A DNA stretch of 64,000 nt, taken from positions 1 to 64,000 of the forward strand of contig CAJQUW010007128.1 of NCBI GenBank assembly GCA_907163375.1, given 5' to 3'. Position 1 is the first letter of the stretch; every line of letters starts with the position of its first letter. Shown piece after piece: positions 24,248 through 61,958 of this stretch. Origin of the DNA: Prostheceraeus crozeri (lineage: Eukaryota > Platyhelminthes > Polycladida > Euryleptidae). The notes beneath the pieces are model-generated. The model saw only the letters and a program-made list of their open reading frames with translations, had not been told where the DNA came from and did no database searches. A program made the position numbers and the translations under genes.

Positions 24248-24370
24248 AAATTGTGTGATAAGATTGATTGTTGTATTATTATATTTGATGCAAAATACAC
24301 TGCCGCTGTTTTTATTTTTCTGTACAAGAAGTAGACATCATAGCAGACATTAGAATTTATTTCATTTAAA

Positions 24371-24853
24371 ATGAATGGTGAAAACCCGACTGGTACACAA
24401 TGTCACATAAGTGGACTATCTCCCAGAGTCTTAGGTTTGACCGACTTCTTAAAATTATATGGGAAGCAAACAACTACGAATTGTGATCTTAAGAAAATTG
24501 CAAATCAATTGGGAATAAAGAATGTTTACCTATTGATGAGGGATGAATTAATATTGATAAAAGATGTACCTGAAGTGAATTTTGTAACAAATCTTCACTC
24601 GTCAGATCAAAAAGGAGTACATTGGTCTGCGGGTATGTCTAATAAAAATGGTGACAATTACTATTTCGACTCTTATGGATTGCTTCCAACAAATGAAGTC
24701 AAAGAATTACTTGGAAATGGAATTTATAATACATTTCAAATTCAAAAACCAGGAACAACTTATTGCGGTCAGTTATGTCTTTATGTTTTATTTAAATTAC
24801 AGGAAGGAGTACCATTTCTTGATATTATGTTAGAATTGAATAAGGGAATTTAA
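24371..24853 (+). CDS. Adenain-like cysteine protease of Polinton copy 1
   Basis: An intact frame of 160 codons. The catalytic histidine sits in GVHWSAG (about residue 81), the acidic residue in YYFDSYG (about residue 96) and the cysteine in TYCGQLCLYVLF (about residue 137). This layout is that of the adenovirus-like maturation proteases of Polintons, which cleave capsid precursors. Length is a little shorter than in adenoviruses (about 200) but usual for Polintons. The next genes are all on the opposite strand. The equivalent in copy 2 (44469-44928) is broken. Whether this copy is active cannot be told, but no lesion is visible. Confidence 0.8.
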   Translation: MNGENPTGTQCHISGLSPRVLGLTDFLKLYGKQTTTNCDLKKIANQLGIKNVYLLMRDELILIKDVPEVNFVTNLHSSDQKGVHWSAGMSNKNGDNYYFDSYGLLPTNEVKELLGNGIYNTFQIQKPGTTYCGQLCLYVLFKLQEGVPFLDIMLELNKGI

Positions 24854-24941: not shown

Positions 24942-26171
24942 TAAAGCTCGGTTATTTGTAATTCGTTTTCATAAAATCTGCCAGTGATTTCTTCATCATC
25001 TAGATCTCTAGTTTGATAGGTAATCGGATAAGTTTGATTTATTTTACAAACTTCAAATATCTCTTTAGTCCAATAACCAACAAAACCTTTTAAAATTTAT
25101 TCTTATACTTAAATATCCTTACTCTATCTCCAATCTTAAACTTCAGCTTACGTTTCTTTAAATTCGGATTACTCTCACTCGAATAATTATTTTCGAATAT
25201 TTTCTTTCGTATTAAATCAGGATCGTCAGAAGCATTCTTTGGAGTTTCTTTAATACCTGAATGAATCTTATTGTTATAATCCTCAACAAATCCTGGTAAT
25301 ATTTATAACCATTTCTGATTTCCTTGGTTTGTAAATTTCTTGAATATTTTATTTTTGAAAGTTCTATTGAACCTCTCTATTACTACACCTTTGCCAGCAT
25401 TTTCTGTGGAATAAACAGTTTTAAATAATGGCTTAACATTTCTATTGTAAAACTCAGATCCTTTATCAACAGACAATTTTTTTGGCTTTCTATTACTTTC
25501 TTTAAAGATTTCTTCAAACGCATATTTAACTGACAGACCACTTTTGTTTTTTAAAGGCTTCACCCAAGCGTAGCGTGTATATAAATCTATAACAGTCAAT
25601 GCGTACTTAAACCCTCTTTCATTCGGCATATTGATTAGATCAGCACTCCAAATATCATCTTTATTAAATATTTTTACTTTCAATAGATATTTTGGTTTTC
25701 TATATTCTTTATGAATTTCGGAGGCATAAGTTTCACTTAAACCTTGACCAAAAAGCATTTTAGCTTGTAATGCTTTCTTAACAAACATTCTTTCAATTTT
25801 TTCTTAAAAGGTAGGATTTTCAATATTATCTAATTCTTGTATCATTTTCTTATCAGCTACATGTCTAGAAGCTATATATCATCATGTTCTCTTTATGCTA
25901 GATCGTGTCTAGAAGCTGCTGCATCTACTCTGTTTGTTGGTTCTTCACCTGGTTTTGGATTATTATTCTTATCTAGTCTTATATCTAATCGAGTTCCTGG
26001 GCCGGTATATGAATGACCAGGAAGATGTTTCTCTTTTGAATATTTACTCCAAATAAAACCAGGAATGTTTTCTAATGCTTTTTGTATATCGTTACCTTCG
26101 TAACGCTCACAATTTGAGGTTTTATGTACTTTTAAGAGATAATTCAATAAATCTAAATTAGAAATTTTCAA
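24942..26171 (-). pseudogene. PLA2-like plus integrase gene of Polinton copy 1
   Basis: The N-terminal frame (25893-26171) has a parvovirus-type phospholipase A2 signature: a YTGPGTRL calcium-loop-like motif and RHDLA where HDxxY is expected. It stops there, and several lesions follow. The next frame (25303-25788) is the retroviral-type integrase core: DDIWSADLINM, LSVDKGSEFYN and IERFNRTFKNK give the D, D and E positions. The C-terminal SH3-like part (GDRVRIF type) continues to a stop at 24942 with another frame break near 25300. The enzyme would insert the element with a 6-bp duplication. No clear ATG is visible at the 5' end. Confidence 0.75.
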
Positions 26172-30250: not shown

Positions 30251-30908
30251 GGTGTGAGTGCTATAATTAATTAATTACATTTTTAGATATAAATTTTAGA
30301 TATAAATTTTTTAGAGACAAAATATTCTATAAATAAATTTTTAGATGCAATAAAATTTTCATATGTAATGAAATTTTTGATGTAATAAGTTTTTAGATGT
30401 AATAAAAAAATTATTATTCCCACGTGTCATCATCATCACTTAAATTACTCTCACAGACGATTGTTTGAAATATTTCAGCTTGAACATCTTCTCCGTTATA
30501 AGGTAACATAATTTCATTTTCATCAGGTGCTTGACGTTTAAGAATATTTATTTGACCAGAAAATTTTTTTTCTTCATTATTATTATTTTTATCAGGAATA
30601 CTAATTCCAGTTTCTAAAGATCTTTTCCATGGTTTATTAACAATTGTTGTCAATGTTTCGCCATGGTATAATTGTATGAAATCTTCTACTTTTACTTTAG
30701 TTTTTGTATAACCCTTAAATGTTTTCTTTTCACTAAGTCTTCCTTGTTCATCTACAGTAATACAGTATTTTACTTTAGGTGCAATAAACATTGCAAAAAT
30801 AATTACACCATTTCCATAATCATTTTTTCCTTGACACAATTCTCCCCCAACATATCCAGCAGCATCTAATTTATTGAAGAGTTCATTAGAAATGTATATT
30901 GAATCAGT

Positions 30909-31958
30909 GTTTTTTACAATAATGGAAAACCACTATTAAATGCGCCATCTTCTGTTTCAATATCATAAACATATTGTTTTTTATTATTCAAATATCTTAC
31001 AGTGGTGACATCTTTGGTAATATTATTTTTAACTTGACATGCACTAGAGCATAATGGTTTATCTTTTCTTTCGCTTACTATCAAATTAATACCTAGAGAT
31101 GATGCCAAATTGTATAAACCACTAAAGGTTTCTTTATTTTTCTGTGTAAAACGAATAGTTGCATATTTCCTTGTAAAAAAAGATTTCTTGTCCCCATCTG
31201 CTGCATAAAATCCAACAAGAACTATCATATCTAATATTATATTCAGCATTTAGAACATACCAGGGAACACGTTTTTCTTTAAACTGATTATAATAATTTT
31301 TACTAAAGTATATAGCATATTGTCTTGGATTTTGAAAATTAAGTTTGTATACTCTAGATGATCTCATTGTATCATATATTTTACAATAATTGTTATAAAC
31401 TTCATTAATATATGTTTTTAATTTAAGTAAGAGGTCAAGGTTTTGGTTATTTAAAGTACAACAATATCTGACTCCTGGTTCATAATTACAAATTCCAGCA
31501 GAACCATCTCCCAAAAAGAACCCTTCTATAAATGCTTGCTTACATCTTAAATTAGGTGGATCATTAAAATAAATATCACTTACAATTTGTTTCAATATGA
31601 TTGTATTGTCGTGTAAAAATAATTTATTATGTAGTAAATTTGTTCTCTTATTTAATTCTTGTGGCTTTATTTCATTACCTGTTTAATCTAACAATGAATG
31701 ATCTTTAGTAACATCTACTATTCCCATTTTTGTTCTTACTCGATAAATACTTTTATTTGTAAGATGTCTAATAATTTTTTTTACTTTACTCCATCCATTA
31801 TGAGTATAAATGTCTGAATTATCAACTAATGAAATTTCTTTCATATCACCATTGGTTTCAAAGGGACTAATTTTATATTTGTTTACAATACTATCTATTC
31901 TAGAAATAAATATTGAATTATTATTTCTCAATATTACAGGCGTGTCAGCTGTTACTGA
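30909..31958 (-). other. Decayed intein with LAGLIDADG endonuclease in DNA polymerase B motif C
   Basis: The 1050-bp insert starts with a Ser codon at 31956-31958 and ends with an Asn codon at 30909-30911, next to Thr. Splicing blocks are visible: block A SVTADTPVILR, block B VDVTKDHSLL (about 31690-31715), block F VYDIETEDGAFNSG (about 30930-30970) and block G VKN before TDS. Two endonuclease motifs lie between: FIEGFFLGDG (31503-31532) and VLVGFYAADG (about 31193-31222). Lesions are a TAA at 31683-31685, a frameshift near 31230-31250 and one near 30915-30925. Copy 2 has an uninterrupted site between 57759 and 57760. It would have spliced itself out of the polymerase and homed into empty alleles. 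Confidence 0.9.
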
Positions 31959-32965
31959 ATCTGCAAAATGAATGTATTTTTCGTTGAAACCATTAATTTC
32001 TAAAATAAAGTTATTCATGATTCTTCTAGAGTGAGAAAGAATAAAAGAACCTAAATGTGATGGCATGAATGACGTCTTCCCATCTTTTACAATATTAGTT
32101 TTGAGAAATTCATCATCTTCCATTTCTACTTTCGCTAAGAATTGTTCATCATTTAATTTTTCATAATCTTTTACTTCTTGAGTGAAATTTTTTCTCATTG
32201 TATTCTCATTCCATAAATGATATTTAGTGGTTATATCTTTTTGTACAGTTTTGCCATATAGCGAATTCATCAATAATTTAATTAACTCATCGCCTACAGT
32301 ATTTCCTTCTGTTTTATATTTTTTTCTCAAATTAAAAAGTTTTTCAATATAATTTCGAAATGGTGAAACTTGATAATTTTTTTCATAAGTTATACCATCA
32401 TTAATATGTAAGATTTTTCCACCACATCTAACAATTTCTTGTATGTCTACAGAAGTTAAGACATCATAACATATACCATTTCTAAACCTGATTACTTTCA
32501 CATGAGAATTATTATTTTGATTTTTAACTTTATCTTTTATAGGAACTGGTTGAAAAAACATATCATTCGGATATTGAAACACAACTGTAAATATTCCAGT
32601 TTTAGGTCTAAATGCATGCATGCGCTATGTATGCGCTGGTCGTGTTTGGACGGTCTCTCGTTCAGTATTTGATGTTTTGGTCGTTCTGCGGTTATCTGGC
32701 ATCAATTTTCCTCAAATTTTCTAGTGAGCCTGCGTCTATCGATACTCCACATCGTCGTTGCGTCGTCATTACCTGAATTCCAACGGATTGCCTACGATTT
32801 CCTTCCTACGTGTTAGATTGCTTCCTTCAATGAGTATTGTTCATTGGTCTCTGCCTCTGTCACAAACGCAGTGTCACGTCGCGTTCTGAAGCTCAGTAGT
32901 GATAATCTGCATAGCTTCAGGACTATACTGACCATATTACCAACTTTCGCAAGAGGACTGACACT

Positions 32966-33031
32966 TGTCAGCTTGGTGTTGTGGTATTGTTCGGAACTAA
33001 CGCCTAGACATCTGTGGTTCGATTTCTAGCA
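32966..33031 (+). promoter_or_regulatory. tRNA-like pol III boxes in the LINE 2 5' region
   Basis: A B-box match ggttcgatttc at 33016-33026 is preceded about 45 bp upstream by an A-box-like stretch (tcagcttggtgttgtgg). It ends about 65 bp before ORF1. LINE 1 has the same layout. Confidence 0.4.
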
Positions 33032-33096
33032 ACGTAAATTTTCTTCGAAATACGTGTGTCTCATAGTTTTGCCGCTTTGCTTTGAAACTTCGTGCT

Positions 33097-33879
33097 ATGT
33101 CTACTAAGTTAAATGGTAAGGCAATTGATACGTCTCGACACTCGAAAACACCACCTAAACGCACTGCCAGAGCTAACTCACAAACTGAGCTTACTCTCGA
33201 GGCTGTAAAATCCATTGTCCAATCATCGACATCCGAAATCATTTTTCAATTAAGAACTGAAATATCTTCACTAAAAGATATTGTGCATGCTCTTTCGAAG
33301 AGAGTTGATAAACTCGAAGCAGAACGAAACAGTAATGATTCTCATATTCAAGAAATGTTGAAAGCAGCCGTTGGTGATGGGCAAAATCCCAATTTAGCGT
33401 TTGATGGTGAGGCTTTGATGGTTGAACTGGAGCAGAGACAGATGAGACAATGCAACCTAATACTCACTGGGTTACCTGAACCTACTAATATTCAGAATTT
33501 TGAATCTGTTCCAGAGTCTGCCACATGTACTCAGATTTTTGGCTCAATTGACTGTTCCAGTATCCCGATTTTGCAAGTTTCACGCCTTGGAAAACCGAAA
33601 TCTTCATCGCAAAGACCTCGGCCTCTGCGTTTAACGCTTCGAAGTGTTCACGACAAAATAAGGATTCTGAAAAACGCCAAAAAGTTGAGACAGTGTCCTA
33701 TGTTTAATAAGGTTTACCTTAAACCTGATCATACAATTCATCAGCGTAATTTGCAATTTCAGCTCCGCAACGAATTGAAGGAAAAGCGCAATGCCGGGTT
33801 AGACTGCATAATTCATCGAGGTAGAGTTGTTGAACGGAACCAGCTTCCACCTTCTTCGGGTTTTCAGCCAACATTTTAA
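33097..33879 (+). CDS. LINE 2 ORF1 protein
   Basis: An intact 260-codon frame from the ATG at 33097. A basic N-terminus (PPKRTARANSQ) is followed by a coiled-coil region (EISSLKDIVHALSKRVDKL), then an RRM-like core (QCNLILTGLPEP) and the C-terminal segment FNKVYLKPDHTIHQRN. The domain order equals LINE 1 ORF1 but the sequences differ, so the two LINEs are separate families. The protein would coat the LINE RNA. Confidence 0.75.
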   Translation: MSTKLNGKAIDTSRHSKTPPKRTARANSQTELTLEAVKSIVQSSTSEIIFQLRTEISSLKDIVHALSKRVDKLEAERNSNDSHIQEMLKAAVGDGQNPNLAFDGEALMVELEQRQMRQCNLILTGLPEPTNIQNFESVPESATCTQIFGSIDCSSIPILQVSRLGKPKSSSQRPRPLRLTLRSVHDKIRILKNAKKLRQCPMFNKVYLKPDHTIHQRNLQFQLRNELKEKRNAGLDCIIHRGRVVERNQLPPSSGFQPTF

Positions 33880-33983
33880 ACACTTCAGTTTCTGCGACTG
33901 AAAGTGAAACAACATTCTGCCCACGTTCTGAATTACATTGTGACAGGCCTACTTCATCGAATCAAGCTCTTAGTAATTTAAGA

Positions 33984-36793
33984 TGTTTGCTGTGCAACTC
34001 CCGATCTTTGAACAATAAACTGCCTAATCTGCATGCATTACTGTCCTCCGCTGCTTATGACGTTCTAATATTTACCGAAACATGGTTGAAGCATTGCACT
34101 CCTGATTCTCTTCTATGTAATAACTTGTTCTACAATATGTTTAGATGTGACAGATGTGATGGTTATGGTGGAGTTGCCGTATTTGTGCGTATGGATCTAT
34201 GTGCAACTCAGGTTGACGTTCCAGAATCAAATTTTTTGATGCTATTTGCTTGGATATCATGCTGTCTAAATGTCTAAAGTATCGGTTACTCGCTGTTTAC
34301 AATCCTCCTAAGTCGACCATAGACTCGTCTAAACAATTAAGTCTATCATTCATTTGTGTGCTGGTGCAAATTTACCATTTCTGCTCTGTGGAGATTTTAA
34401 TTTCCCATGTATCGACTGGTCGGTTCCGCGCAGTTTGGGTGATAAATGTCATGACATTTTCCTTTCGACGATTCTTGAAAACCGTCTTACTCAACTGGTT
34501 GATAGCGCAACACGATGTTCTTCTCTGCTTGACCTTGTATTCACCAACAATCCTTGCTCAGTTTCTGCATTGAACGTTATAGCACCTTTCCATTCTTCGT
34601 GCGACCATGCTGCGGTTGAGTTTTTGATTCAGACATTGTCGAATATCTCTCCGAAGACGACTAACGTCAGATATGCTTACAATATTTCTGACTATGACAA
34701 CATGAAAATATTTTTATCCAGTATATCATGGAATAATATCATCAAAGGTAACTCGCATATCACAGCAGCTTCTGTTGATAACATGTGGAACGCCTTTCTT
34801 AACGTGATGCACGAAGCAGTTGACCGCTTTGTTCCTAGGATTGTGATCAATTATCGTAAACCTAAGCAATCAAAAATGCTGCGATCATTACTGAAAAGTA
34901 AACGATCTTTCTATCGGAGAAACAGCCATCTCTACCGAAAGGTTTCCGAAAAATATGATGCGGAAGTTTCAAAGTCAAATCAAGAGTTTGAACGTAATTT
35001 ATTTTGAGTGGTGATGTTAAGAAATTCTACGCACATGTTAATAAAAAGTTGAAAACACCACATTCTGTACCGTCTATTTTAATGACAACAACGATCTCAT
35101 TTCGGATAACTCTGAAAAGGCTAATGTCTTGAATGAGTATTTTTCATCTGTGTTTGTCCAGGACGATGGCATGTCGGCGACATTCCCTCAGAGAGTCAAC
35201 AGCGAAGTGTCTTTGTGTTCCATAGAGTTCCCAGTTACTGAAGTGATGCAGTGTTTATCAAATTTACCGGCTAAGCTTTCTAGATCACCCGATTTTCTTC
35301 CTGCTATGCTTCTACGAAAAGTGTCATTTGAAATAGCACCTTTCCTGGCCACGCTTTTTGAGTTCTCTATGATTACTGGTCATATTCCTGTGGATTGGTG
35401 TACAGCTTTTGTCATCCCGTTGTATAAACGAAGAGGAAATGCTTCTAAGACATCGAGCTACAGGCCCATATCGTTGACATCAAACGTATGTAAGGTTATG
35501 GAACGTGTCATTGCAACCAAGCTGATGTCATACTTGAAGCAAAATGTTATCCTTTGAAATCATCAATTTGGTTTCCCAAATAGAAGATCGACGACTACTC
35601 AGCTCATTACTTCAATTCATGATTGAGTTAACATGTTAATCTGTAAGCAAAGAGTTGATTGTGTATATATCGATTTTGCAAAGGCGTTCGATTCGGTTAT
35701 TCATCGTAAACTGATTACTAAACTTAAAGCCTACGTTATTCGATATGAACTTCTTAACTGGATTTATGCTTTTTTATCCAATCGTACTCAGGCAGTGATA
35801 ATTGATGACGCCGTATCGGATAGCGTTCCAGTGCTGAGTGGAGTTCCTCAGGGCTCCGTCTTAGGGCCAATTCTGTTTCTTATATACATAAATGATTTGG
35901 ATGATTGTTTTTTGCATAGTGTTGCAAAATATAAACTTTTTGCTGACGATCTCAAGATATATCATTCTTGTAACTCTCTTGATATTCCGATTTTTCAAGA
36001 CTCACTAGCAAGTCTGGATGTTTGGTGCAGAAAATGGCAACTTAAAGTGTCTTCCGATAAATGTTCTGTATTTTCCCTCGGAAAAAATTTCCATCCTGAC
36101 ATCAATTATTATGTAGATGGTTCATTAGTGTGTGCAAAAGATTCTGTATCAGATCTAGGAATTTTGCTGTCGTCAGACTTAAACTTTAGGTCGCACTGTA
36201 GTCGCATTGCTGCGTCTGCCTTTTCTAGAGCTTGTTGCTTGCTCAAAAGTTTTTCGTTCTCTGAAAAGAATTCCTTAATCCTGGGCTACAAGACTTTTGT
36301 TCGGCCTATTCTTGAACATAACTGTCAAGTGTTCAATCCGCATTTAAAGCGTGATATTGTTTGTCTTGAACGCGTTCAAAAATATTTCACTCGTCAGCTG
36401 TGCAAGCGGTGTCATATTCCCTACTCTGATTACAGGGATCACTTAAGAATTCTAAATCTTGACTCTTTGTCTAACAGGCGTATTTTACTTGATTTATGTC
36501 TTTTTTATAAAATAGTTCATGGAATTGTAGACGTTGATTTAAGAAATTTTTTGTGTGACCGCCCAAAGTCCTATTGTACTCGAAGTTTCAGTGTTAATTC
36601 ATCTCAAGTTCAGCCCTATGTCTTCCCTTCTAACCGGAACTACTTGAACACCTTCTTTTTCCGAGTTTATGAATTGTGGACCGCCTTGCCAACAGAATGT
36701 ACTCGTGCTCCGTCCATCAAGTCGTTCAAGTTCAATTTGGCGAATGTAGACATCGACTCCTTGTTGTGGCTGTTTCTTTTTCGATGTTTGTAA
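33984..36793 (+). pseudogene. LINE 2 ORF2: endonuclease and reverse transcriptase, broken
   Basis: Endonuclease motifs appear in two frames: LCNSRSLNNKLPNLHALL and FTETWLKHCTPDS in 33987-34277, then LCGDFNFPCIDW and LDLVFTNN in 34354-35007. After breaks near 34250 and near 35010 the RT continues in 35129-35557 (YRPISLTSNVCKVMERV) and 35633-36793 (VYIDFAKAFDSVIHRKL, SGVPQGSVLGPILF, FADDLKIYHS). At least three frame changes and a TGA near 35557 are visible. The C-terminus reaches the LINE 3' end. It is more decayed than LINE 1. Confidence 0.8.
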
Positions 36794-39130
36794 AGTGCCG
36801 ATCGTCTATAAGTGCCATGCTGGCCATGACCTGCGTTCATCTTGTTTTTCACTTCTTGGAATGCACATTTATTTACAATAAAAAAATCTTATCTTATCTT
36901 AAATGTTTGAGTATTAAATTCATATAGTATTTCTCGTTCTTCTTCTTGACGAAATTTTCTAGCTGATTCAGATTTAGGGTATTCTGAATTTTCATTATAC
37001 ATAGCTGATGGATATAAAGATGTTGCATCAAAAGCCATTAGAAATTCATTTTTTTGTTCAAGTAGTTGATTTGAAATTTTCTTACAAATTTCAGTTTTAT
37101 CTCCTAAATCTCGATACTGTTTCATTAAATCTATTAAATTACTTTCAGGTAGATACTGTTTTAATATTGGTAACAAGATATTACAAAATGGCGATATGTA
37201 TTTTCTTATATTTGGTGAAACTCTTCCACCTTTAACAGATTTTCTAATATAATTTCTGGCCCATAAATCTATATGAGAATGAATATTTATATTGTCATTT
37301 TGTACGCTTTTCATCCAACCGTTAAATGTTAAAGCGGAGGATGTTAAATTAGTAGTTATATCTTCACCAACTAAATCTCGCATAACATTATTATATTTGT
37401 AAATACAAAAAGCGGAGGAAAGAACGTCGTTAACTAAATATGGTCTCCATTCATTTTCTTTTTCTTTATAATTTTCATGTGTTATGTCTCCAATTTTATA
37501 ATTTAATTTACACACATTGGTAGGAATTTTAAAATTCTCACACCATTTAGAAAGACTTGTTTTTACATGTTGATAACTACATTTCATTATAATAGTTTGA
37601 AGTGCTAATTTACCTGGAGGTGAATTTTTTCGTAATATTATTATTGTTTTTAAATCTAAAAGATTTTTGAATATATCTACTAACACATTCAGTTGTATAA
37701 TATTCCTCTTGAAGTTTTAAGAGGCGGTTTAGATAATTTGAAATTAGCTTTTATCGGAAAATAAGAATCAAAACCTGATGAATTGTGAGCTATTAAAGTT
37801 ACTTTCGAATAATTAAATTTTCCAAGAGTTTTAAAAAATTGATGTATCGGACATGCGTCCCCTGGGTTTCCCCCGATTGGACATTCATCATCCTCAGTTC
37901 TCGTAAATATTTTCACACAATTTTTAAGTTTATTAAATTCTAATTCAGTTAAATTATTATACTCATTAATTTGTTTTTTAAGTTTTTTAATTTCATCTTC
38001 ATCTTTTGATCGTTTAATTTTAATCATATCAATTAACAAACGTGTTTCTAATTCTTTCAATCTTTGTTTCGGTGAGCAACATATAAATTTATTAAAATTA
38101 ATAGCTCCTACAGCATAAGGAATAGGATGAGCTGTCGAACAGTTAGGATCAATAAAAGTTTCGAGATCCCAAATATATGTTGAACTATAGTCAATTTTTT
38201 CTTTGTTATGATTTTATGTGGACGCGTTGTTAGATTTTCATCAGTAACTGTTTTATATATTGGTTTGAAATTATTTTCAATTTCTCTAATAGTCTTTAAT
38301 TTATGAGATTTATTAATTAAACAATAGTGTCCAATTGTTGAACCTTCGTGAAAATAATTGTAATAAACATAATTATGAAACGTTTCAATTTCTCCAGGAT
38401 TTAAATGACGATTCGAAGGACTGTAATACTGAACACATTCTCCAAAAATTTATTGAACTGAGAAAATTTGCAGTTTGACATTACTCCTGTTCTCGATGTG
38501 GCTTTCTCTTTATATAAAAATTTATTAAACATTTCTTTCATCATTTCTCCTTGTTCTTCATTAAAACCTCGTAAAACATTATAACATTTAATAAAACAAA
38601 AATCTTCAGAAGGAATATAACAATATTCACCGAAATATTCTTTGATTCTATATTTCATATTAATACCTGCACCTCTATGTGATCTTGGTACTGGCTTCAT
38701 TCCAAAATCTTCATATTTAATATCACCTGTAAAAATCCATTCCTGACTATCTGATTTCTCATCCAGATTGGAAAACCATGTTTCAAATGAATTTTTTATT
38801 ATAGAAGGTTACGTAAAAATTTTGAATTATATTTTCCTGATCTTTAATAACTTTTCCAAGTAAATTAATAATTTTACCATTTGCTAAAAGTTTTCGCATA
38901 TCATTTACTACATTAATAAAAGATACATTTTCATATTTAATTTCATTTGGATTAAATAAATTACATAAATCATCACCAAGTTCATCCTTAATTCCATCAT
39001 CAAAAAATATCAGTAATAGGAGTTTCTAATATTTCTTTTGTTCCACGTTTCTGTTTCTTAATACTACGTTTAATACTACGTTTCTGTTTTTTAATACGTT
39101 AACTACGTTTAATTTGTGCATCAAACTCAG

Positions 39131-42906: not shown

Positions 42907-43599
42907 AGTAGTATAGGGTATGAGATCCGGTGCCAACGCTTCGCTCGCCACCGGATCTCATACCTAGGTAGATACAAAAATGAAAAATGCAAAAATAGGG
43001 TCCTCCTGAAATTTATAAAAAAATCCAAAATTAACATACCTGCAAAATCAGCCCCAAAATGCCCAAAATTAACTACCCTAGCTGCAAAATCAGCTCCAAA
43101 ATGCTAAAATAGGGACCTCTTGAAATTTAGCAAATTCAAATGCAAAATAGGGTCCTCTTGAAATTTATAAAAAACAGCTAAAATAGACCCCCTTGAAATT
43201 TAACAAATCAAAAATGCAAAATAGGGTCCTCTTGAAATTAGCAAATCAAAAATGCAAATAGGGGCCTTCTGAAATTTAGGAAAAAACAAAAATGAATATG
43301 AACAAAAATATTCATTTAAAAATGGAAGATGTAAAAACAAAAGAACCATCAGCCCCTTTATATCCTTCATTATCATATGAAATGGATATAGCAAAACACA
43401 AAGATAGAGTCAGATACATGAAAGATAAGGAAGCGCAATTATTACTTAAACTAGAACATTATAATAAATTAAGAAAAAGATGGACGATAGCTAAGAATGT
43501 GACACAAGGCGTTGGAGCATGTTTAACAATTTCTTTAGGCGCTCTCACTATTGTCATTTCATCTGGCGTTCTTGCAATTCCTGTTGTTGCTACAGCTTT
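42907..43599 (+). repeat. Left TIR of Polinton copy 2
   Basis: Reverse complement of 61266-61958 at equal length (693 bp) with few differences. It includes the terminal palindrome, the gggtcctcttgaaattt repeats and the first 100 codons of the TIR-spanning gene. Confidence 0.9.
42917..42964. repeat. Terminal palindrome, left end of copy 2
   Basis: Perfect 16-bp arms (ggtatgagatccggtg and its complement) enclose a 16-nt loop containing gcttcgctcg. It starts only 10 bp inside the terminus. Confidence 0.9.
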
Positions 43600-48252: not shown

Positions 48253-49586
48253 CTAACCTATCCTAGCCATTTTTCCATTAAGAATTTCAATAGTATATTC
48301 GGCGTCTTCTAGCAATAAACCATAAGCCATCAATGAGGTTGTGGAATTTGTCTTCTCAATATTGCTTGTCAAATCACAACCATTCTTAATAATATCTTCC
48401 GATTGTGCACTTAAATCAAAGCATAAGACAGGATATAAATTCTTCCAATCTACAGGAGCTAATTGTGCTTCTACTCCAAATTCTCGGCACAAATTTCTAT
48501 AAGCGTCATATCCTTCCATAAACTGATTATTGGTGTTATCAAATCTTAATGGGTCAATAGGATAACGTGTTTTATTCAAAGAAATTTGTAAACTTCGAAT
48601 TGAATTAACATGGAAAAGACTAGTGTTCTTATCAAAACTAGGTGTTTCATTCTTTTGAAAAGTGAGTAAAAAATATCTTGGAGTATTTGATGTTCTAGTG
48701 AAATGCCAGTTAAATCTTTGTTCAGTAAAAGTGACAGAGCTCGCAGTACGCTTCATAAAACTTACTGGAATTGGTTTGTTCGTATTTAATCTTTTCGTAA
48801 TAGTTGTTCCAACCTCTAAACTAGGAGTAATATGTTTTACCCACCATTCAAGTCTATCAATTTTTAGGTATGCTTTCTTCCCAGCCTTTCCATAAAATAT
48901 TGATTCATTATTTACAGTGCGATGAACTATGAGTTTGAACTTTAATTGATATGATATTTTATTGTAATCTAAATACCCAAATAATGGAGACAATGACCAA
49001 TGAACAGTTTGTTTTTTTTATTATTGAAATTACGTCTTTTCTGATATGAGCTATTTTGTGTACTGTTTAACTGTTTCACTATGTTTTCTACATCTTTCGC
49101 AATTCCTGCTGAATCTGTTCCAGTGTGAGTTAAATCATCTTTAAGTATGCCGGTATGGTTATCAGGTAGCCATCCTTCGATTTCATGCATTTTAGTATTT
49201 TCACCTATTGTAACAAATCGAAGCATCGAATCAATAATACCAGGTGAATCACTTATGGTTTCTATATTTTGTGTTGCAACATCTAAACGCATTTGTGTGA
49301 ATAATCTTGGGAAGAAATTGTTTTCTAATGTAATATTATCCGTAGCAGGTAATGGTGTTGTAAAATCAGCATCAGAATAGAGAGAATATTCACAGTGTAA
49401 AAATGAATCGGGTAAATATAAATAACTTTCTTGATTGTCAACTTCAAAAATTAAATCACCTCCTGTATTCACTCTAACTGAAGAACCGGAGTTCATAGCA
49501 ATTCTTATATAGTCATTCTTTTTTTGATTGTAACTAACGAACGGGGGATCATCTAATCTAAATTTGCTTTCAATCAGAGTTGCCAT
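48253..49586 (-). pseudogene. Major capsid protein (double jelly roll), copy 2
   Basis: Start ATG at 49584-49586, stop at 48253, about 440 codons with one frameshift in an 8-T run near 49010. N-terminal half: LDDPPFVSYNQKKNDYIRI, ESYLYLPDSFLHCEYSLY. C-terminal half: ISYQLKFKLIVHR, PRYFLLTFQKNE, SIRSLQISLNKTRYP, LCFDLSAQSEDI. The last two are hallmarks of hexon-like capsid proteins in Polintons. Together with the penton-like protein, protease and ATPase this makes a virion plausible for the ancestor. Because the lesion is in a homopolymer, it could also be a sequence error. Confidence 0.8.
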
Positions 49587-52339: not shown

Positions 52340-53250
52340 ATAAACAGAAAGGACGTACTACACAAGAGAACTTACATTTCATAGTCTATGGCAAGACTGC
52401 AAGTGGAAAGACTACGTTTCTTAGAAAGTATATAAATGAACATTAGCCTGATGAAACAAACGTACATGTGTTTTGTCTACAGGAAGATGAATGGCCAGAG
52501 TTTTCTAATGTTTATAACGAACATGATTTATGTATGTTAGAAGATATGGAAACTTTTGCTGGAACATATACACAAAAGTCTTTACTAGTATTAGATGACG
52601 TAGCTAGTTTAGTGAAACAAAAAGACATATCAGAAATATTTACAAAAGGACGACACCATAATATACAAATAATAGTATTAGCTCATAAAGCTTGTGATGT
52701 AGATAATAAGATTAGAGAAAATGTAGAAAGCTTTTATACAACTACACAAAATAATACTGCATTCTTTGAGGACATCAAGAAAAATTATAAACTCACGTTA
52801 CCTTTAGCAAAATATGCACATGTTAAGTACGGTATAATACGTGTTGATACAATTTTGAATCAAATGCAAGTATATGATAAAGATCTAAATGTTCTATTGG
52901 ATACAGAACATGACTTATGTAACAATGCAACCGATTTCAATATAAGTCTTTATGTAGGAGCTAAGAATTTATCACCACATAACATAGAAGAAATAATCAT
53001 CTTTCTAGAAAACGAATCACTTGGGCCACTAACTATCATACCTGAAACATTTTATTTCTATTTCGATCATTATTTAAATAATGTATTACAAATAGCCACT
53101 CCTAAACGATTAGAAAATAGAGATACTCTAGATGTTATCAGGGCAGGCATTAATGATATCCGTGATGTACTAAAAAGTGTGCAATCTCTAGTCTCTGATG
53201 CCAAAAATACATTAAGTGCTATGCGTCCAATAATACAGTCCGTTTCATAA
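52336..53250 (+). pseudogene. Second P-loop (A32-like) ATPase of copy 2, one in-frame stop
   Basis: From the ATG at 52336 the protein has a Walker A motif GKTASGKTTFL (about residue 20), then a TAG at 52444-52446. The frame continues with SLLVLDDVAS (Walker B), FTKGRHHNIQIIVLAHKA (the GRHxN and sensor-like motif shared with Polinton packaging ATPases) and a long C-terminal region. The final stop TAA at 53248-53250 is made by the Tc1/mariner insertion, so the ancestral protein was longer. It is only distantly similar to the other ATPase at 58429-59163. A second packaging-type motor or a helicase partner is possible. Confidence 0.7.
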
Positions 53251-54666: not shown

Positions 54667-54804
54667 TGGTGGTTGGTTAATAAAGAACATTTAACTGTTT
54701 ATGATTTAGAAACATTAGCACAACTAAATATTCCTGTATACGTGAAAAACATAAATTATTTATTAAAAAGTAAAACATAAATTTTTTATTAAAAAACGTA
54801 AATA

Positions 54805-57800
54805 ATGGAAAATGTTAAAGGACCAGAACACGCGATTGATGAATTCATCAAGAAACAATTTGATGAATTTGATGCACAAATTAAACGTAGTAGACGTATT
54901 AAAAAACAGAAACGTACTAGGCGTAGTATTAGACGTAATATTAAAAAACAGAACCGTAGAACAAAGGAAACATCAGTCACACCAATTACTGATATATTCT
55001 CTGATGATAGACTTGGTGATGATCTATTGAATCTGTTTAATCCGAACGTTATCACGTATGAAAATGAACTTTTTACTAATGTAGTAAATGATATACGTGC
55101 TCTTTTAAGAAATGGGAAAGTTTTAAATTTATTGGGTGTAATAAACAAAGAAGATGGAACCACAATACCAAACTTTTACGCTACATTTTATAATAAAAAT
55201 TCATTTGAAACATGGCTTCGTAATCTAGATCACAAATCAGATACTAATGAATGGGTTTTTACAGGTAGTATCAAATACGAAGATTTTGGTATGAAACTAG
55301 TACAAAGATCACATAGAGGCGCTGGTATTAACATGAAATATAGAATCAAAGAATACATCGGCCAATATTGTTACATTCCTTCTGAAGATTTCTGCTTTAT
55401 AAAATGTTGCAACGCCTTACGTGGGTTCAATCAAGAACAAGCTAATATTATGTTCGAAAGGTTTAATGACTTTTTATATAAAGAGAAAGCTACCTCTAGA
55501 ACAGGAGTAATGTCAAACTGCAAGTTTTCTCAATTCAATAAATACTTTGGAGAATGTGTTCAGTATTTCAGCCCTACTAATCGTCATTTAAATCCTAGAG
55601 GTATTACAACGTCGCATAATTACGTTTATTACAATTATTCTCACGAAGGTTCATCAATAGGATACTACTGTTTAATAAATAAGTTCTACAAAACAGAAGC
55701 TATTAGAGAAATTAAAAATAATTTCAAACCAATATATAAAACTGTTACTGATGAAAATCTAACAACACTTCCGTATAAGACCATAACAAAGAAACCAATT
55801 GACTATGGTTCAACATATATATGGGATCTCGGAACTTATCCAGATCCTCGTTGTGCAACAGCCCATCCTATTCCTTATGCTTTAGGTGCTATCAATTTCA
55901 ATAAATTCATGTGTTGCTTACCGAAGCGGAGATTGTCAGAAGTGGACAAACGTTTATTATGTGACATGATGAAACTAAAAAAGAGTCAAGATCCAGCGGA
56001 AATTAAAGAACTTAAGAAACAGATAAGTGAATACAATAACTTAACTGAACCAGAACATAACAAACTGCAACGTTGTGTGAAAATCTTTATTAGGAAACAA
56101 GATGAATGTCCGTTCGGGGGAAAACCAGAGGACGTATGTCCGATACATCAATTTTTCAAAAACCTTGGCTCTTTTAATCATTCAAAATTAACTTTAATAG
56201 CGCACAATTCATCAGGATTCGATGCATATTTTCCGATAAAATCTAATTTTAAATTAACTAAACCAGCGCTTAAAACATCAAGAGGAATACTCACTGCTTC
56301 TTTACAAAATCCTTATACAACTGAAAGTGTTAGTAAGTATATCCAACGTTCCTCTAGATCTAAGCAACTAGGTGACTCTACAAAACGTAACATAAAACCA
56401 AGCAAACCTTTACAAACCATTGTAATGAAATGTAGCTATCAACACGTGAAAACGAGTCTTTCCAAATGGTGCGAGAATTTTAAAACCCCTAGCAATATGT
56501 GTAAATTAAATTATGAAATTGGCGAAATTACACATGACAATTATCAGGAAAAAGAACATGAGTGGAAACCGTATTTAATTAACGATGTTCTTTCATTAGC
56601 ATTTTGTATCTACAAGTATAATCAAGTAATGCAAGAATTAATTGGCGAAGATATAACTACTAATTTAACATCTTCTGCTTTAACATTTAACGGTTGGATG
56701 AAGAACGTACAAGATGACAATATAAGTATACACTCACATACTGATTTATGGACTAGAAACTATGTTAGAAAATCTGTTAAAGGTGGAAGAGTTTCAGCCA
56801 ATATAAGTCATTATGAATCTCCATTTTGTAACATCGTGATACCAATATTACAGAGGTATTTACCTGGTAATAATTTAATAGATTTAATGAAGCAGTATAA
56901 TCAGTTGCAAGACAAGAATGCTCTTTGTAAAGAAATTGAACATTAACTACTCGAACAACGAAATGAATTCTTAATGGCTTTTGATGCAACATCTTTATAT
57001 CCATCAGCTATGTATGACGAACATTCAGAATACCCTAAAGCTGAATCCGCTAGAAAATTTAGACAAGAAGAAGAACAAGCAGTATTATATCAATTTAACA
57101 CTCAATCATTTCGTCCTAAAACTGGAATATTCACAGTTGTATTTCATTATCCTGATGAGATGTTTTTTCAACCAGTTCCTGCGAAAGATAAGGTAAAGAA
57201 TGAAAACAATTGTAACCAAGAAATAATAAGGTTTAGGAATGGAATGTGTTATGATGTATTAACTTCTGTAGACATACAGGAAATTGTTAGATGTGGCGGG
57301 AAAATATTATCTATTACAGATGGTATAATTTATGAAGAAAATTATCACGTTTCACCATTTCGCAAATACATTGAAAAGCTCTTCAATTTAAGAAAAAAAT
57401 ATAAAATAGAAGGAAACACTGTAGGCGATGAGTTAATTAAATTATTAATGAATTCACTATATGGAAAAACCGTGCAAAAAGACATAACCACTAAATATCA
57501 TTTATGGAATGAGAATACATTGAGAAAAAATTTCACTCAAGAAGTAAAAGATTTTGAAAAAGTAAATGATGAACAATTCTTAGTGAAAGTAGAAATGGAA
57601 GATGATGAATTTCTTAAAGCTAATATTACAGACACTGAAAAGACATCATTCATGCCATCACATTTAGGTTCTTTTATTCTTGCTCACTCTAGACGAATCA
57701 TGAACAACTTTATTTTAGAAATTAATGGTTTTAAAGAAAAACACATACATTACACAGATACTGATTCCATATACATTTCCAATGAACTCTTCAATAAATT

Positions 57801-58269
57801 AGATGCGGCTGGATATGTTGGCGGGGAATTTAGCCAAGGGAAAAATGATTATGGTAATGGGGGAATTATATATGGATTGTTTATCGCTCCCAAAATAAAA
57901 TATTGTATTACTGTAGATGAACAAGGGAGACTTAGTGAAAAGAAAACATTTAAGGGTTATACAAAAACTAAAGTAAAAGTAGAAGATTTCATTCAATTAT
58001 ACCATGGCGAAACATTGACAACAATTGTTAATAAACCATGGAAAAGATCTTTAGAAACTGGTATTAGTATTCCTGATAAAAATAATAACACTGAAGAAAA
58101 AAGTTTCACTGGTAAAATAAATATTCTTAAACGTCAAGCGCCTAATGCAAATGGTATTATGCTACCTTATAGCGGAGAAGATGTTCAAGACGAAATATTT
58201 CAACGAATAAAAAAAGAATGTAATATAATTGAATACACTGATAGTGAAGACTGGGAAGAGGAATCTTAA
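54805..58269 (+). pseudogene. Protein-primed DNA polymerase B of copy 2, intein-free
   Basis: About 1155 codons with a single TAA at 56944-56946, between the exonuclease and palm halves. The N-terminus is Lys/Arg-rich. Motifs in order: Exo I WDLGTYPD near 55823 where WDLET is expected (the Glu is Gly here; copy 1 keeps Glu), Exo II IAHNSSGFD (residues 465-473), motif A FDATSLYPSAM near 56978, motif B LLMNSLYGK near 57450, motif C YTDTDSIYIS at 57751-57780, and PWKRSLETG near 58036. The uninterrupted motif C is the empty site of the copy 1 intein. The enzyme would replicate the element from its protein-capped ends. Confidence 0.88.
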
Positions 58270-58428: not shown

Positions 58429-59163
58429 TTAATCAATATTGATTGTGATAAAACCATAGTCGTTTGCCCAAGCATTGTTACACGATTGTTTAAAATCATC
58501 TTTATCTCTTATACATAAGTCTCTTAACAAATCACTTAGGTTTCTTGGATTGATTTCGAAAAGCATAAAAATATTAGCATTCTTTCTAATAACGCCGCCA
58601 TCTAGTGAATACATACTTTGTGTCAAATAAAAGACACTACAGTTATTGTGTCGTCCTCTTGTAAAATAATTTCTCTGAACTGCCTGATCTCTGTTATTAA
58701 CACAATCATCAAACACCACACAATGTTTTTTCGTTTTATTTAGTTTACTAGGATCTTGCATATTCCCACTATCATCTATTAATTGCATCGATATGTGTTT
58801 ATTTTTATTGGGTTCTACTAGTTGTTTATTTTTCGCTGCTTCTTCACACCAGGAACTTATTTCCTCTTCATACTCCGATTTTTCATATTCTTCAAACAGT
58901 GAAGCTATAGCTGATTTTGTAAGATTATTTTCCAAACCATATTTCAAAAATTGATAAATAGGTTGTTCTGCTGTTGTTGTATAAATGATAAGATTGTTAT
59001 AATCCAAAAAGTTGGGTGTCGTGAGAATTTTAAATAATAGATACGTTTTTCCACAACCTGATCTTCCACAGATAACTGATAAAACTTTATTTGACAAGTT
59101 GTGATGATGATTGAATTTCACTTTCTTGTTTAGTGGATATTTTACAGAACTGCTTTCACTCAT
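58429..59163 (-). CDS. A32/FtsK-HerA-like DNA packaging ATPase
   Basis: An intact frame of 244 codons with Walker A VICGRSGCGKTYLLF (about residue 33), Walker B KHCVVFDDCVNN (about residue 150) and the motif NYFTRGRHNNCSVFYLTQSM, which is diagnostic of the Polinton and poxvirus-type genome packaging ATPase. Length is usual for the family. It ends 160 bp from the polymerase stop, convergently, and starts directly after the penton gene. It would pump the element genome into a capsid. No lesion is visible. Confidence 0.88.
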   Translation of the reverse strand: MSESSSVKYPLNKKVKFNHHHNLSNKVLSVICGRSGCGKTYLLFKILTTPNFLDYNNLIIYTTTAEQPIYQFLKYGLENNLTKSAIASLFEEYEKSEYEEEISSWCEEAAKNKQLVEPNKNKHISMQLIDDSGNMQDPSKLNKTKKHCVVFDDCVNNRDQAVQRNYFTRGRHNNCSVFYLTQSMYSLDGGVIRKNANIFMLFEINPRNLSDLLRDLCIRDKDDFKQSCNNAWANDYGFITINID

Positions 59164-59184
59164 TTTTAAGACAATATTTTTTAA

Positions 59185-60952: not shown

Positions 60953-61573
60953 TTATTTTTGTCCTATGGAACTTTGTTCTAACGTTTTTAATAAAGTTCT
61001 TATGTCTTCTAAAAAAGCCGCATTGTCTACTTTGTCTTGAGATTTAATAGGTATTTTAGTTGCTTCTCTAGCTATTTGATCAAATTTTTCAATCTCATCT
61101 AACGTAATAACATTGTCATCACACACTCTCTGGAAGTAGTAATGTAGTTTATCATATACTTCTTTGACATGTGCATGTTTCTTACTTAAGGATTTTCGTT
61201 TCTTAGACATTACAGATTTATCTATCACTGTTGCAAGTGACGTTGTGAAAACACCTGTACCTGTTAAAGCTGTAGCAACAACAGGAATTGCAAGAACGCC
61301 AGATGAAATGACAATAGTGAGAGCGCCTAAAGAAATTGTTAAACATGCTCCAACGCCTTTTGTCACATTCTTAGCTATCGTCCATCTTTTTCTTAATTTA
61401 TTATAATGTTCTAGTTTAAATAATAATTGCGCTTCCTTATCTTTCATGTATCTGACTCTATCTTTATTTTTTCCTATATCCATTTCATATGATAATGAAG
61501 GATATAAAGGGGCTGATGGTTCTTTTGTTTTTACATCTTCCATTTTTAAATGAATATTTTTGTTCATATTCAT
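60953..61573 (-). CDS. TIR-spanning membrane protein, full-length copy
   Basis: An intact frame of 206 codons. A basic coiled region (KDRVRYMKDKEAQLLFKLEHY) is followed by hydrophobic segments (GACLTISLGALTIVISSGVLA and VVATALTGTGVFTTSLA) that look like two membrane passes. A cytosolic-type tail with an EF-hand-like acidic helix follows (DNVITLDEIEKFDQIAREATK). Polintons commonly carry such a protein; its role is not known. The first 103 codons lie inside the right TIR, so a truncated duplicate exists at the left end (43292) and in copy 1 (22751). Confidence 0.65.
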   Translation of the reverse strand: MNMNKNIHLKMEDVKTKEPSAPLYPSLSYEMDIGKNKDRVRYMKDKEAQLLFKLEHYNKLRKRWTIAKNVTKGVGACLTISLGALTIVISSGVLAIPVVATALTGTGVFTTSLATVIDKSVMSKKRKSLSKKHAHVKEVYDKLHYYFQRVCDDNVITLDEIEKFDQIAREATKIPIKSQDKVDNAAFLEDIRTLLKTLEQSSIGQK

Positions 61574-61958
61574 TTTTGTTTTTTGCTAAATTTCAGAAGG
61601 CCCCTATTTGCATTTTTGATTTGCTAATTTCAAGAGGACCCTATTTTGCATTTTTGATTTGTTAAATTTCAAGGGGGTCTATTTTAGCTGTTTTTTATAA
61701 ATTTCAAGAGGACCCTATTTTGCATTTGAATTTGCTAAATTTCAAGAGGTCCCTATTTTAGCATTTTGGAGCTGATTTTGCAGCTAGGGTAGTTAATTTT
61801 GGGCATTTTGGGGCTGATTTTGCAGGTATGTTAATTTTGGATTTTTTTATAAATTTCAGGAGGACCCTATTTTTGCATTTTTCATTTTTGTATCTACCTA
61901 GGTATGAGATCCGGTGGCGAGCGAAGCGATGGCGCCGGATCTCATACCCTATACTACT
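61266..61958 (-). repeat. Right TIR of Polinton copy 2
   Basis: Reverse complement of 42907-43599 (both 693 bp). It includes repeats of the form aaatttcaagaggaccctat and the terminal palindrome. Confidence 0.9.
61901..61948. repeat. Terminal palindrome, right end of copy 2
   Basis: Arms ggtatgagatccggtg and cgccggatctcatacc (one mismatch) with a 16-nt loop containing cgagcgaagcg. It ends 10 bp inside the terminus. Confidence 0.9.

What the first reader, a model, noticed from the sequence alone, without database searches (positions are those of the whole stretch)
30909..31958. LAGLIDADG intein in the DNA polymerase B of an animal-type Polinton, with an empty site in the sister copy
In copy 1 the catalytic motif C of polymerase B is cut between IHFAD and TDSIYIS by a 1050-bp in-protein insert. 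The insert has all intein blocks: Ser1 with SVTADTPV, block B VDVTKDHSLL, two LAGLIDADG motifs, block F VYDIETEDG and a terminal Asn before Thr. In copy 2 the same site is intact (57751-57768). Motif C inteins are known in archaea and giant viruses; I am not aware of a well-described one in a metazoan Polinton, but that needs checking. The insert has a stop and two frameshifts, so it is a fossil.
Basis: partly seen in the sequence, partly recalled or inferred. Interest (0 to 1): 0.93.

Follow-up and report, generated by a model that had tools for sequence, protein, structure and literature searches.

The report
Intein in an animal Polinton polymerase
A protein-level parasite (an intein with a DNA-cutting-enzyme domain) sits in the polymerase gene of virus-like transposons in an animal genome, in many copies beside many uninvaded ones; inteins have been described as absent from animal genomes.

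Summary
The 1050-bp insert (30909-31958, minus strand) splits motif C of a Polinton PolB exactly between Asp and Thr; the neighbouring copy is empty at the same base. It is a motif-C (pol-c) intein: TIGR01445 32.9 bits (cut-off 24.5), LAGLIDADG_3 24.0 bits (cut-off 22.5), and three motif-C inteins of viral PolBs hit only this place in the window (E 2e-27 to 3e-30). The window copy is broken, but it is not a lone fossil. In its own 2.05-Gb assembly 150 of 150 scored matches were intein copies. Of 88 fetched stretches 86 hold at least 85% of it, and 24 of 88 read openly from PolB through intein to PolB. A PolB query across the site gave 150 of 150 sites without the intein. Two copies carry the intein with about 180 and 235 bp of donor-type flank inside another PolB type, as homing predicts; ordinary gene conversion is not excluded. 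The assembly encodes Wnt genes, so the host is an animal; its phylum is unknown. Protein splicing and DNA cutting are inferred, not shown.

The parts
30909..31958 (-). intein insert, 1050 bp, between the Asp and Thr codons of PolB motif C
31686..31958 (-). intein N piece: Ser1, block A (SVTADTPV), block B (VDVTKDH)
   Evidence: TIGR01445 E=9.4e-8, 32.9 bits; up to 48% identical to motif-C inteins over about 90 aa
31134..31679 (-). intein middle piece with first LAGLIDADG-like motif (GFFLGDG)
   Evidence: LAGLIDADG_2 below cut-off; blastp to viral motif-C inteins down to 9e-17; 150 of 150 scored genome places
30917..31249 (-). intein C piece with second LAGLIDADG-like motif (GFYAADGD) and block F (YVYDIETEDG); the last residues, VKN, are read in the neighbouring frame
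   Evidence: PF14528 24.0 bits over cut-off 22.5
31959..32624 (-). PolB N-extein of copy 1 (palm part up to motif C)
   Evidence: DNA_pol_B_2 E=3e-18
30417..30908 (-). PolB C-extein of copy 1
   Evidence: 91% identical to copy 2 over 444 bp; no Pfam hit on its own
36892..38213 (-). upstream PolB pieces of copy 1
   Evidence: DNA_pol_B_2 E=1.3e-13 on 36892-37716; aligned to copy 2
32615..36900 (.). nested insertion with a non-LTR retrotransposon (plus-strand RT frame 35627-36793) that splits PolB of copy 1
   Evidence: gap in the copy 1 / copy 2 alignment; PF00078 relatives
54802..58269 (+). PolB of copy 2 in two frames, with an uninterrupted motif C at 57759/57760
42907..43599 (+). left terminal inverted repeat of copy 2 (693 bp, 98.8%)
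61266..61958 (-). right terminal inverted repeat of copy 2; 6-bp ATCAAA target duplication outside both ends
48253..49017 (-). major capsid protein part of copy 2 (double jelly roll)
   Evidence: PF21738 E=1.2e-18
52447..53250 (+). packaging ATPase (A32-like) of copy 2
   Evidence: PF04665 E=8.1e-7
25303..25803 (-). retroviral-type integrase of copy 1
   Evidence: PF00665 E=1.8e-10

Best explanation
It is one decayed copy of a large family of motif-C inteins with a LAGLIDADG homing endonuclease, carried in the protein-primed DNA polymerase B of Polintons of an animal. Inferred mode of life: PolB is translated with the 350-residue intein inside its catalytic YxDTDS motif; the intein cuts itself out (Ser1, block B Thr and His, final Asn, +1 Thr) and joins the two halves, so that the polymerase can work and the host element survives. 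The endonuclease would cut the empty motif-C site of other PolB copies, and repair from a filled copy would install the intein with some flanking DNA. After that the intein multiplies mainly as a passenger of Polinton transposition. SHOWN: identity by sequence, exact site, filled and empty copies in one animal genome, many open copies, and two copies whose mosaic flanks fit intein transfer between PolB types. INFERRED: splicing, cutting, and that the mosaics arose by homing. The confidence given is for what it is and where it sits; for homing as the cause of the mosaics I would say about 0.5.
For: Profiles and motif-C relatives. Exact insertion. Family in the own assembly: 150 of 150 scored places, E 2.4e-85 or better, from 1313 first-look candidates; 86 of 88 fetched stretches keep at least 85% of the insert; 67 of the first 68 with long matches, 90.7-100% nucleotide identity to the window insert, the 100% being the window itself. 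Open through both junctions: 24 of 88; in these SVT at the start 24 of 24, VKN at the end 23 of 24, TDS after it 23 of 24, the VDVTEDH form of block B found in 21 of 24. Empty sites: 150 of 150 scored, open frames up to 1217 aa. Both states within one PolB type: empty L156 is 0.017 from filled L084 in the N-extein. Transfer: L109 and L125 have exteins 0.10-0.11 from the main filled copies (median among copies about 0.033) but inteins only 0.040-0.043 away (median 0.044). Upstream diagnostic sites 197 bp or further away are copy-2-like in 38 of 43 and 35 of 43, those 181 bp or nearer main-like in 20 of 21 and 21 of 21 (Fisher p 4e-12, leaving out 2 sites of L109 in neither state, and 1e-10; the sites are linked, so these are descriptive). 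Animal host: 30 Wnt matches, best 187 bits.
Against: No biochemistry. Penultimate Lys instead of His, though the same is seen in motif-C inteins of several viral PolBs. Variants shared by three or more copies show no depletion of amino-acid changes in the intein (98 non / 36 syn against 379/134 in singletons, odds 0.96, p 0.91; no sub-region significant), while the exteins do (odds 0.22, p 5e-6; 0.43, p 0.02), so recent selection to keep the intein's sequence is not detected; the lower pairwise dN/dS of 0.57 among 17 open copies is weaker evidence. At 57 of 85 distinct places the intein carries a stop or out-of-frame change. The two mosaics are close kin (inteins 1.2% apart) and may be one event. 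Patches of copy-2-type sequence away from the intein in L148, L073 and the window copy show that ordinary conversion between copies also occurs.
Confidence: 0.9

Rival explanations
1. Same intein family, but it spread only as a passenger: it entered one Polinton lineage once, was amplified by transposition, and reached the second PolB type by ordinary gene conversion or recombination between Polintons; the endonuclease has long been idle.
For: No detectable amino-acid constraint on the intein among shared variants; conversion patches away from the intein exist (L148, L073, window copy); at 57 of 85 places the intein carries a stop or internal out-of-frame change.
Against: The tract in L109/L125 surrounds the intein on both sides; filled and empty alleles coexist within one PolB type. 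The mosaics were found with an intein query, so that the tract had to include the intein; this weakens the point.
Confidence: 0.35
2. The intein no longer splices (Lys in place of the penultimate His); filled PolB copies are dead polymerases that transpose with polymerase supplied by empty copies.
For: Empty copies with open frames of 1050-1217 aa are common in the list; some out-of-frame changes are shared between places (up to 11), which may mean that broken copies were multiplied, though run-length errors of assembly are not excluded.
Against: 24 of 88 filled stretches are open throughout; the exteins of filled copies show purifying selection among shared variants; Lys at this position is also the state of several open motif-C inteins of viral PolBs.
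Confidence: 0.15
3. Assembly chimera, or contamination by a virus or symbiont.
For: None found; the host name is withheld and completeness figures are lacking.
Against: 150 scored places, fetched ones lying on contigs of up to 1.35 Mb; PolB of copy 1 is itself split by a non-LTR retrotransposon; Wnt genes in the assembly.
Confidence: 0.01

Closest known systems
Motif-C (pol-c) inteins of viral and archaeal family-B DNA polymerases (found here: 32 distinct, among them IMG/VR contigs and a Lokiarchaeota contig)
   Same: Same insertion point D|TD[SG], Ser1, Asn end, +1 Thr, many of similar length (315-359 aa); the three used as queries are homologous over nearly the whole length.
   Different: The nine polymerases that I classified match PHROG 'DNA polymerase' families, and L035 and L009 match PF00136/PF03104, whereas here the host is of the PF03175 kind (organellar and viral, protein-primed). 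Identity is roughly 25-48% over the longer alignments; the insert forms a long branch of unresolved place.
PI-PkoII intein (PDB 2cw7), PI-SceI, I-DmoI
   Same: A profile of three motif-C inteins reaches them (2e-16, 4e-4, 7e-4): kinship with solved intein and LAGLIDADG structures.
   Different: Archaeal or fungal hosts (recalled); the window pieces alone do not reach them.
Homing endonuclease domains in Polinton pPolBs noted in PMC11071308 (passages read), which cites Jeong et al. 2023 on nematodes (not held, not seen)
   Same: Insertions in Polinton pPolB; that paper suggests 'intein invasions'.
   Different: From the passages I cannot tell the site, the type of endonuclease in pPolB, whether splicing blocks are present, or whether filled and empty copies were compared. 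This is the nearest precedent and limits any claim of priority.
Eukaryotic inteins surveyed in PMC5784728 (passages read)
   Same: Viral inteins in DNA polymerases are the largest viral class there (67).
   Different: Its abstract lists fungi, algal chloroplasts and some eukaryotic viruses, no animals; PMC8529194 (start of abstract and passages) states that inteins are absent from metazoan genomes.

Membership tests
intein | in-frame insertion between two conserved halves of a host protein | tested here: met
   open through both junctions in 24 of 88 stretches
intein | Ser/Cys/Thr first residue and block A | tested here: met
   SVTAD in 81 of 86 aligned copies; TIGR01445
intein | block B TxxH | tested here: met
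   VDVTKDH in the window; VDVTEDH in 21 of 24 open copies, motif search failed in 3
intein | C-terminal Asn followed by Ser/Thr/Cys | tested here: met
   VKN in 23 of 24 and TDS after it in 23 of 24 open copies
intein | penultimate His (usual, not universal) | tested here: not met
   Lys; Lys also in several motif-C inteins of viral PolBs, so this does not exclude membership
intein | protein splicing | not testable with these tools
   needs an assay
pol-c allele of PolB inteins | inserted between D and T of YxDTDS and homologous to inteins at that site | tested here: met
LAGLIDADG homing endonuclease | two LAGLIDADG motifs | tested here: met
   second motif above the Pfam cut-off; first below cut-off alone but aligned to viral inteins; GFFLGDG or GLFLGDG in 24 of 24, GFYAADGD in 17 of 24 open copies
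LAGLIDADG homing endonuclease | homing into empty sites | tested here: inconclusive
   mosaic flanks fit but conversion elsewhere is also seen
Polinton/Maverick | protein-primed PolB, rve integrase, double-jelly-roll capsid protein, A32-like ATPase | tested here: met
   (integrase seen in copy 1, capsid and ATPase in copy 2)
Polinton/Maverick | terminal inverted repeats and 6-bp target duplication | tested here: met
   copy 2: 693-bp repeats, ATCAAA; ends of copy 1 not delimited
Polinton/Maverick | Ulp1-type protease | tested here: inconclusive
   the one candidate frame searched (24344-24853) gave no Pfam hit; not pursued

The most novel reading that the evidence does not exclude
A homing intein has been moving between Polinton lineages inside an animal germ line: a three-level parasitism (endonuclease in intein in virus-like transposon in animal) with filled, empty and mosaic alleles side by side in one genome, a case in which intein homing could be studied in an animal.
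Probability: 0.5. Interest if true: 0.9.

Novelty: new variant of a known kind. Interest (0 to 1): 0.78.

Why it matters
Inteins are described as absent from metazoan genomes (PMC8529194), and how they reach new hosts is largely inferred from scattered copies. Here one animal genome offers at least 150 filled and at least 150 empty versions of the same site, with a second PolB type acting as recipient, so gain, loss, co-conversion length and decay can be measured directly. It also shows a route, virus-like transposons, by which inteins can be carried in an animal germ line.

Tried and rejected
Rejected: single fossil; assembly chimera (many places); penultimate Lys as decay of this copy. Led nowhere: viral-contig scans with the window pieces and with a PolB alignment found no relatives (0 of 3, 0 of 1 and 0 of 157 pattern matches confirmed). 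A protein search with the N piece had 9 candidates, none significant, and by the tool's length rule admitted only proteins of about 172-548 aa. The PolB protein search listed 120 of 664 hits, 119 with an uninterrupted site and one (P0074) unclear; its length limits exclude most filled full-length proteins, so this says nothing about other species. Host phylum: the retrotransposon search gave few named hits; the arthropod cuticle family gave 0 matches but no control rang; a mollusc haemocyanin search did not complete. The 14 control genomes of the Wnt search held no match; which organisms they are was not shown to me. Rfam: nothing at gathering cut-offs. The dN/dS value for the N-extein is spoiled by unaligned length differences and is not used. 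The defect count (63 of 86) included copies whose aligned ends were trimmed by BLAST; one search replaces it (57 of 85 places). Trees: N and C pieces fall near L003/L005/L009/L055 (91/81 and 83/40), the middle piece with another viral group (86/76), so the origin is open.

Full report
What is there. On the minus strand of the window, a Polinton polymerase B (copy 1) is interrupted at 30909-31958. Alignment to the second Polinton copy stops exactly at both edges and resumes at adjacent bases of copy 2 (57759/57760), with 87.5% and 91.0% identity outside. The insert begins SVTADTPV, contains VDVTKDHSLL, two LAGLIDADG-like motifs and VYDIETEDG, and ends VKN before TDSIYIS. One stop and two frameshifts break it; none of the three is seen at the same aligned place in the other 85 aligned copies.

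Is it an intein? Searched as three separate open pieces, the N piece passes the curated cut-off of NCBIfam TIGR01445 (32.9 against 24.5 bits) and the C piece that of Pfam LAGLIDADG_3 (24.0 against 22.5). Other profiles stay below cut-off and PDB sequences do not respond to the N and C pieces. To find true relatives I scanned viral contigs with a degenerate pattern for the start of a motif-C intein. Of the six contigs, three carry distinct complete inteins in PolB at exactly D|TD[SG], a fourth repeats one of them, and two were incomplete in the stretch held. As tblastn queries the three hit the insert with E 3e-30, 2e-28 and 2e-27. An alignment of them reached 48 viral and 9 archaeal loci. In these and the first six loci together, 32 distinct inteins with both ends lie at this site, and the profile reaches PI-PkoII, PI-SceI and I-DmoI in the PDB. 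The window pieces are roughly 25-48% identical to these inteins over the longer alignments. Trees of the separate pieces place the N and C pieces near a group with a Lokiarchaeota contig and viral contigs L003, L005 and L009 (91/81; 83/40) and the middle piece with another viral group (86/76); the end branches of the window pieces are 1.2-1.5, so the source is unresolved.

Not a lone fossil. The window is contig C5929 of a 2,048,925,868-bp assembly. The middle piece of the intein matched 150 of 150 scored places (1313 first-look candidates; 76-93% amino-acid identity apart from the window itself), many in long open frames. I fetched 88 stretches (87 places, one being the window itself): 86 contain at least 85% of the insert, and in 24 of 88 one open frame runs through N-extein, intein and C-extein within the fetched stretch. 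In those 24 the intein has 350 residues in 22, starts SVT in 24, ends VKN in 23 and is followed by TDS in 23. The penultimate Lys is therefore the family's own state; motif-C inteins of several viral PolBs share it. Against this, at 57 of 85 distinct places the intein carries a stop or an internal out-of-frame change and at 28 it does not.

Empty sites. A stretch of copy-2 PolB across motif C matched 150 of 150 scored places without the intein (3050 candidates), with open frames up to 1217 aa. The last 27 of these matches are 30 bp longer than the query; in the one of them that I fetched (L157) the extra bases lie in the N-extein and the 80 bp around the site are unbroken. All these numbers are lower bounds set by the tool. 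Of eight empty copies fetched, seven are of the copy-2 type; one, L156, is of the main, normally filled type: 47 of 48 and 40 of 40 diagnostic sites, and 1.7% from a filled copy in the N-extein (this comparison used 44 of the 82 N-extein rows and 44 of the 84 C-extein rows). Filled and empty states thus exist within one PolB type.

Signs of transfer. Filled copies differ from one another by about 3.3% (N-extein), 4.4% (intein) and 3.5% (C-extein) at the median of the 77 with all three parts. L109 and L125 differ from the rest by 10-11% in both exteins but by only 4.0-4.3% in the intein. Along the N-extein they are copy-2-like at 197 bp or more from the site (38 of 43 and 35 of 43 diagnostic sites) and main-like at 181 bp or less (20 of 21, 21 of 21); downstream they are mainly main-like to 234 bp, with four exceptional sites at 81-113 bp, and mixed thereafter. 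A tree of the far N-extein joins them to copy 2 with SH-aLRT 100, while their inteins lie close to those of the main copies. This is what homing with co-conversion would leave. Three cautions: the two copies are near kin and probably one event (two more, L137 and L151, share the downstream pattern but lack a long enough N-extein in the set); the intein query guarantees that the tract includes the intein; and patches of the other type away from the intein occur in L148, L073 and in the window copy itself.

Selection. Between variants seen once and variants shared by at least three copies, amino-acid changes are depleted in the N-extein (odds 0.22, p 5e-6) and C-extein (0.43, p 0.02) but not in the intein (0.96, p 0.91), nor significantly in any of its three parts. 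So PolB was under selection while the family multiplied, whereas the intein sequence shows no measurable constraint in that period, although its end residues are kept. Pairwise dN/dS among 17 open copies is 0.57 (0.39-0.89) for the intein, which is weaker evidence since it includes only open copies. Copies were the best matches to the window piece, not a random sample, and one place was fetched twice.

Host and element. The assembly holds 30 Wnt matches, best 187 bits; that Wnt genes are confined to animals is recalled knowledge. The named PolB relatives among the 120 listed are from the limpet Lottia gigantea, but the phylum of the host is not established. Copy 2 is a typical Polinton: 693-bp terminal repeats, 6-bp target duplication, capsid protein, ATPase and PolB.

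What is known. PMC8529194 (start of abstract and passages) says that inteins are absent from metazoan genomes; PMC5784728 (passages) lists fungi, algae and large DNA viruses. PMC11071308 (passages) remarks that Polinton pPolBs contain homing endonuclease domains at different positions, suggests intein invasion, and cites Jeong et al. 2023, which is not held and which I have not seen. Searches for intein with Polinton, Maverick, adintovirus, metazoa and related terms showed, in titles and starts of abstracts, no description of a complete intein in an animal Polinton; of the papers listed I opened only six, and those by passages. Priority therefore cannot be claimed.

Noticed in passing
G000 contigs C2929, C3684, C13059, C11196: Four pairs of intein copies lie tail to tail in inverted orientation, about 1.6-2.6 kb apart (start to start), suggesting palindromic, truncated Polinton copies such as a fold-back during replication might leave.
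   Followed up: no
window C-extein of copy 1, about 195-270 bp downstream of the intein (L064): A run of copy-2-like diagnostic sites inside an otherwise main-type PolB: a likely local conversion, perhaps with the neighbouring copy 2.
   Followed up: partly
window 32615-36900: A non-LTR retrotransposon with nearly open frames is nested in PolB of copy 1 and split the gene independently of the intein.
   Followed up: partly
85 distinct intein places: Some out-of-frame changes are shared by up to 11 places: either broken copies were multiplied with help in trans, or one run-length tract is often mis-assembled.
   Followed up: no
window 52447-53250 (+) and 58429-59184 (-): Copy 2 has two frames that match the A32-type ATPase profile (29.2 and 23.1 bits, cut-off 22.8), on opposite strands; whether one is a second gene or a nested piece of another element was not examined.
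   Followed up: no
L055 (Lokiarchaeota contig JAEOTR010000065.1): A complete motif-C intein in an archaeal PolB, 45% identical to a viral one and among the best matches of the window N piece.
   Followed up: partly
L026, L028, L029, L031, L032: Shorter motif-C inteins (250-256 aa) in viral PolBs; two of these contigs (L026, L032) carry an asparagine synthase gene nearby; in the one shown in the alignment (L026) the middle part looks reduced.
   Followed up: no
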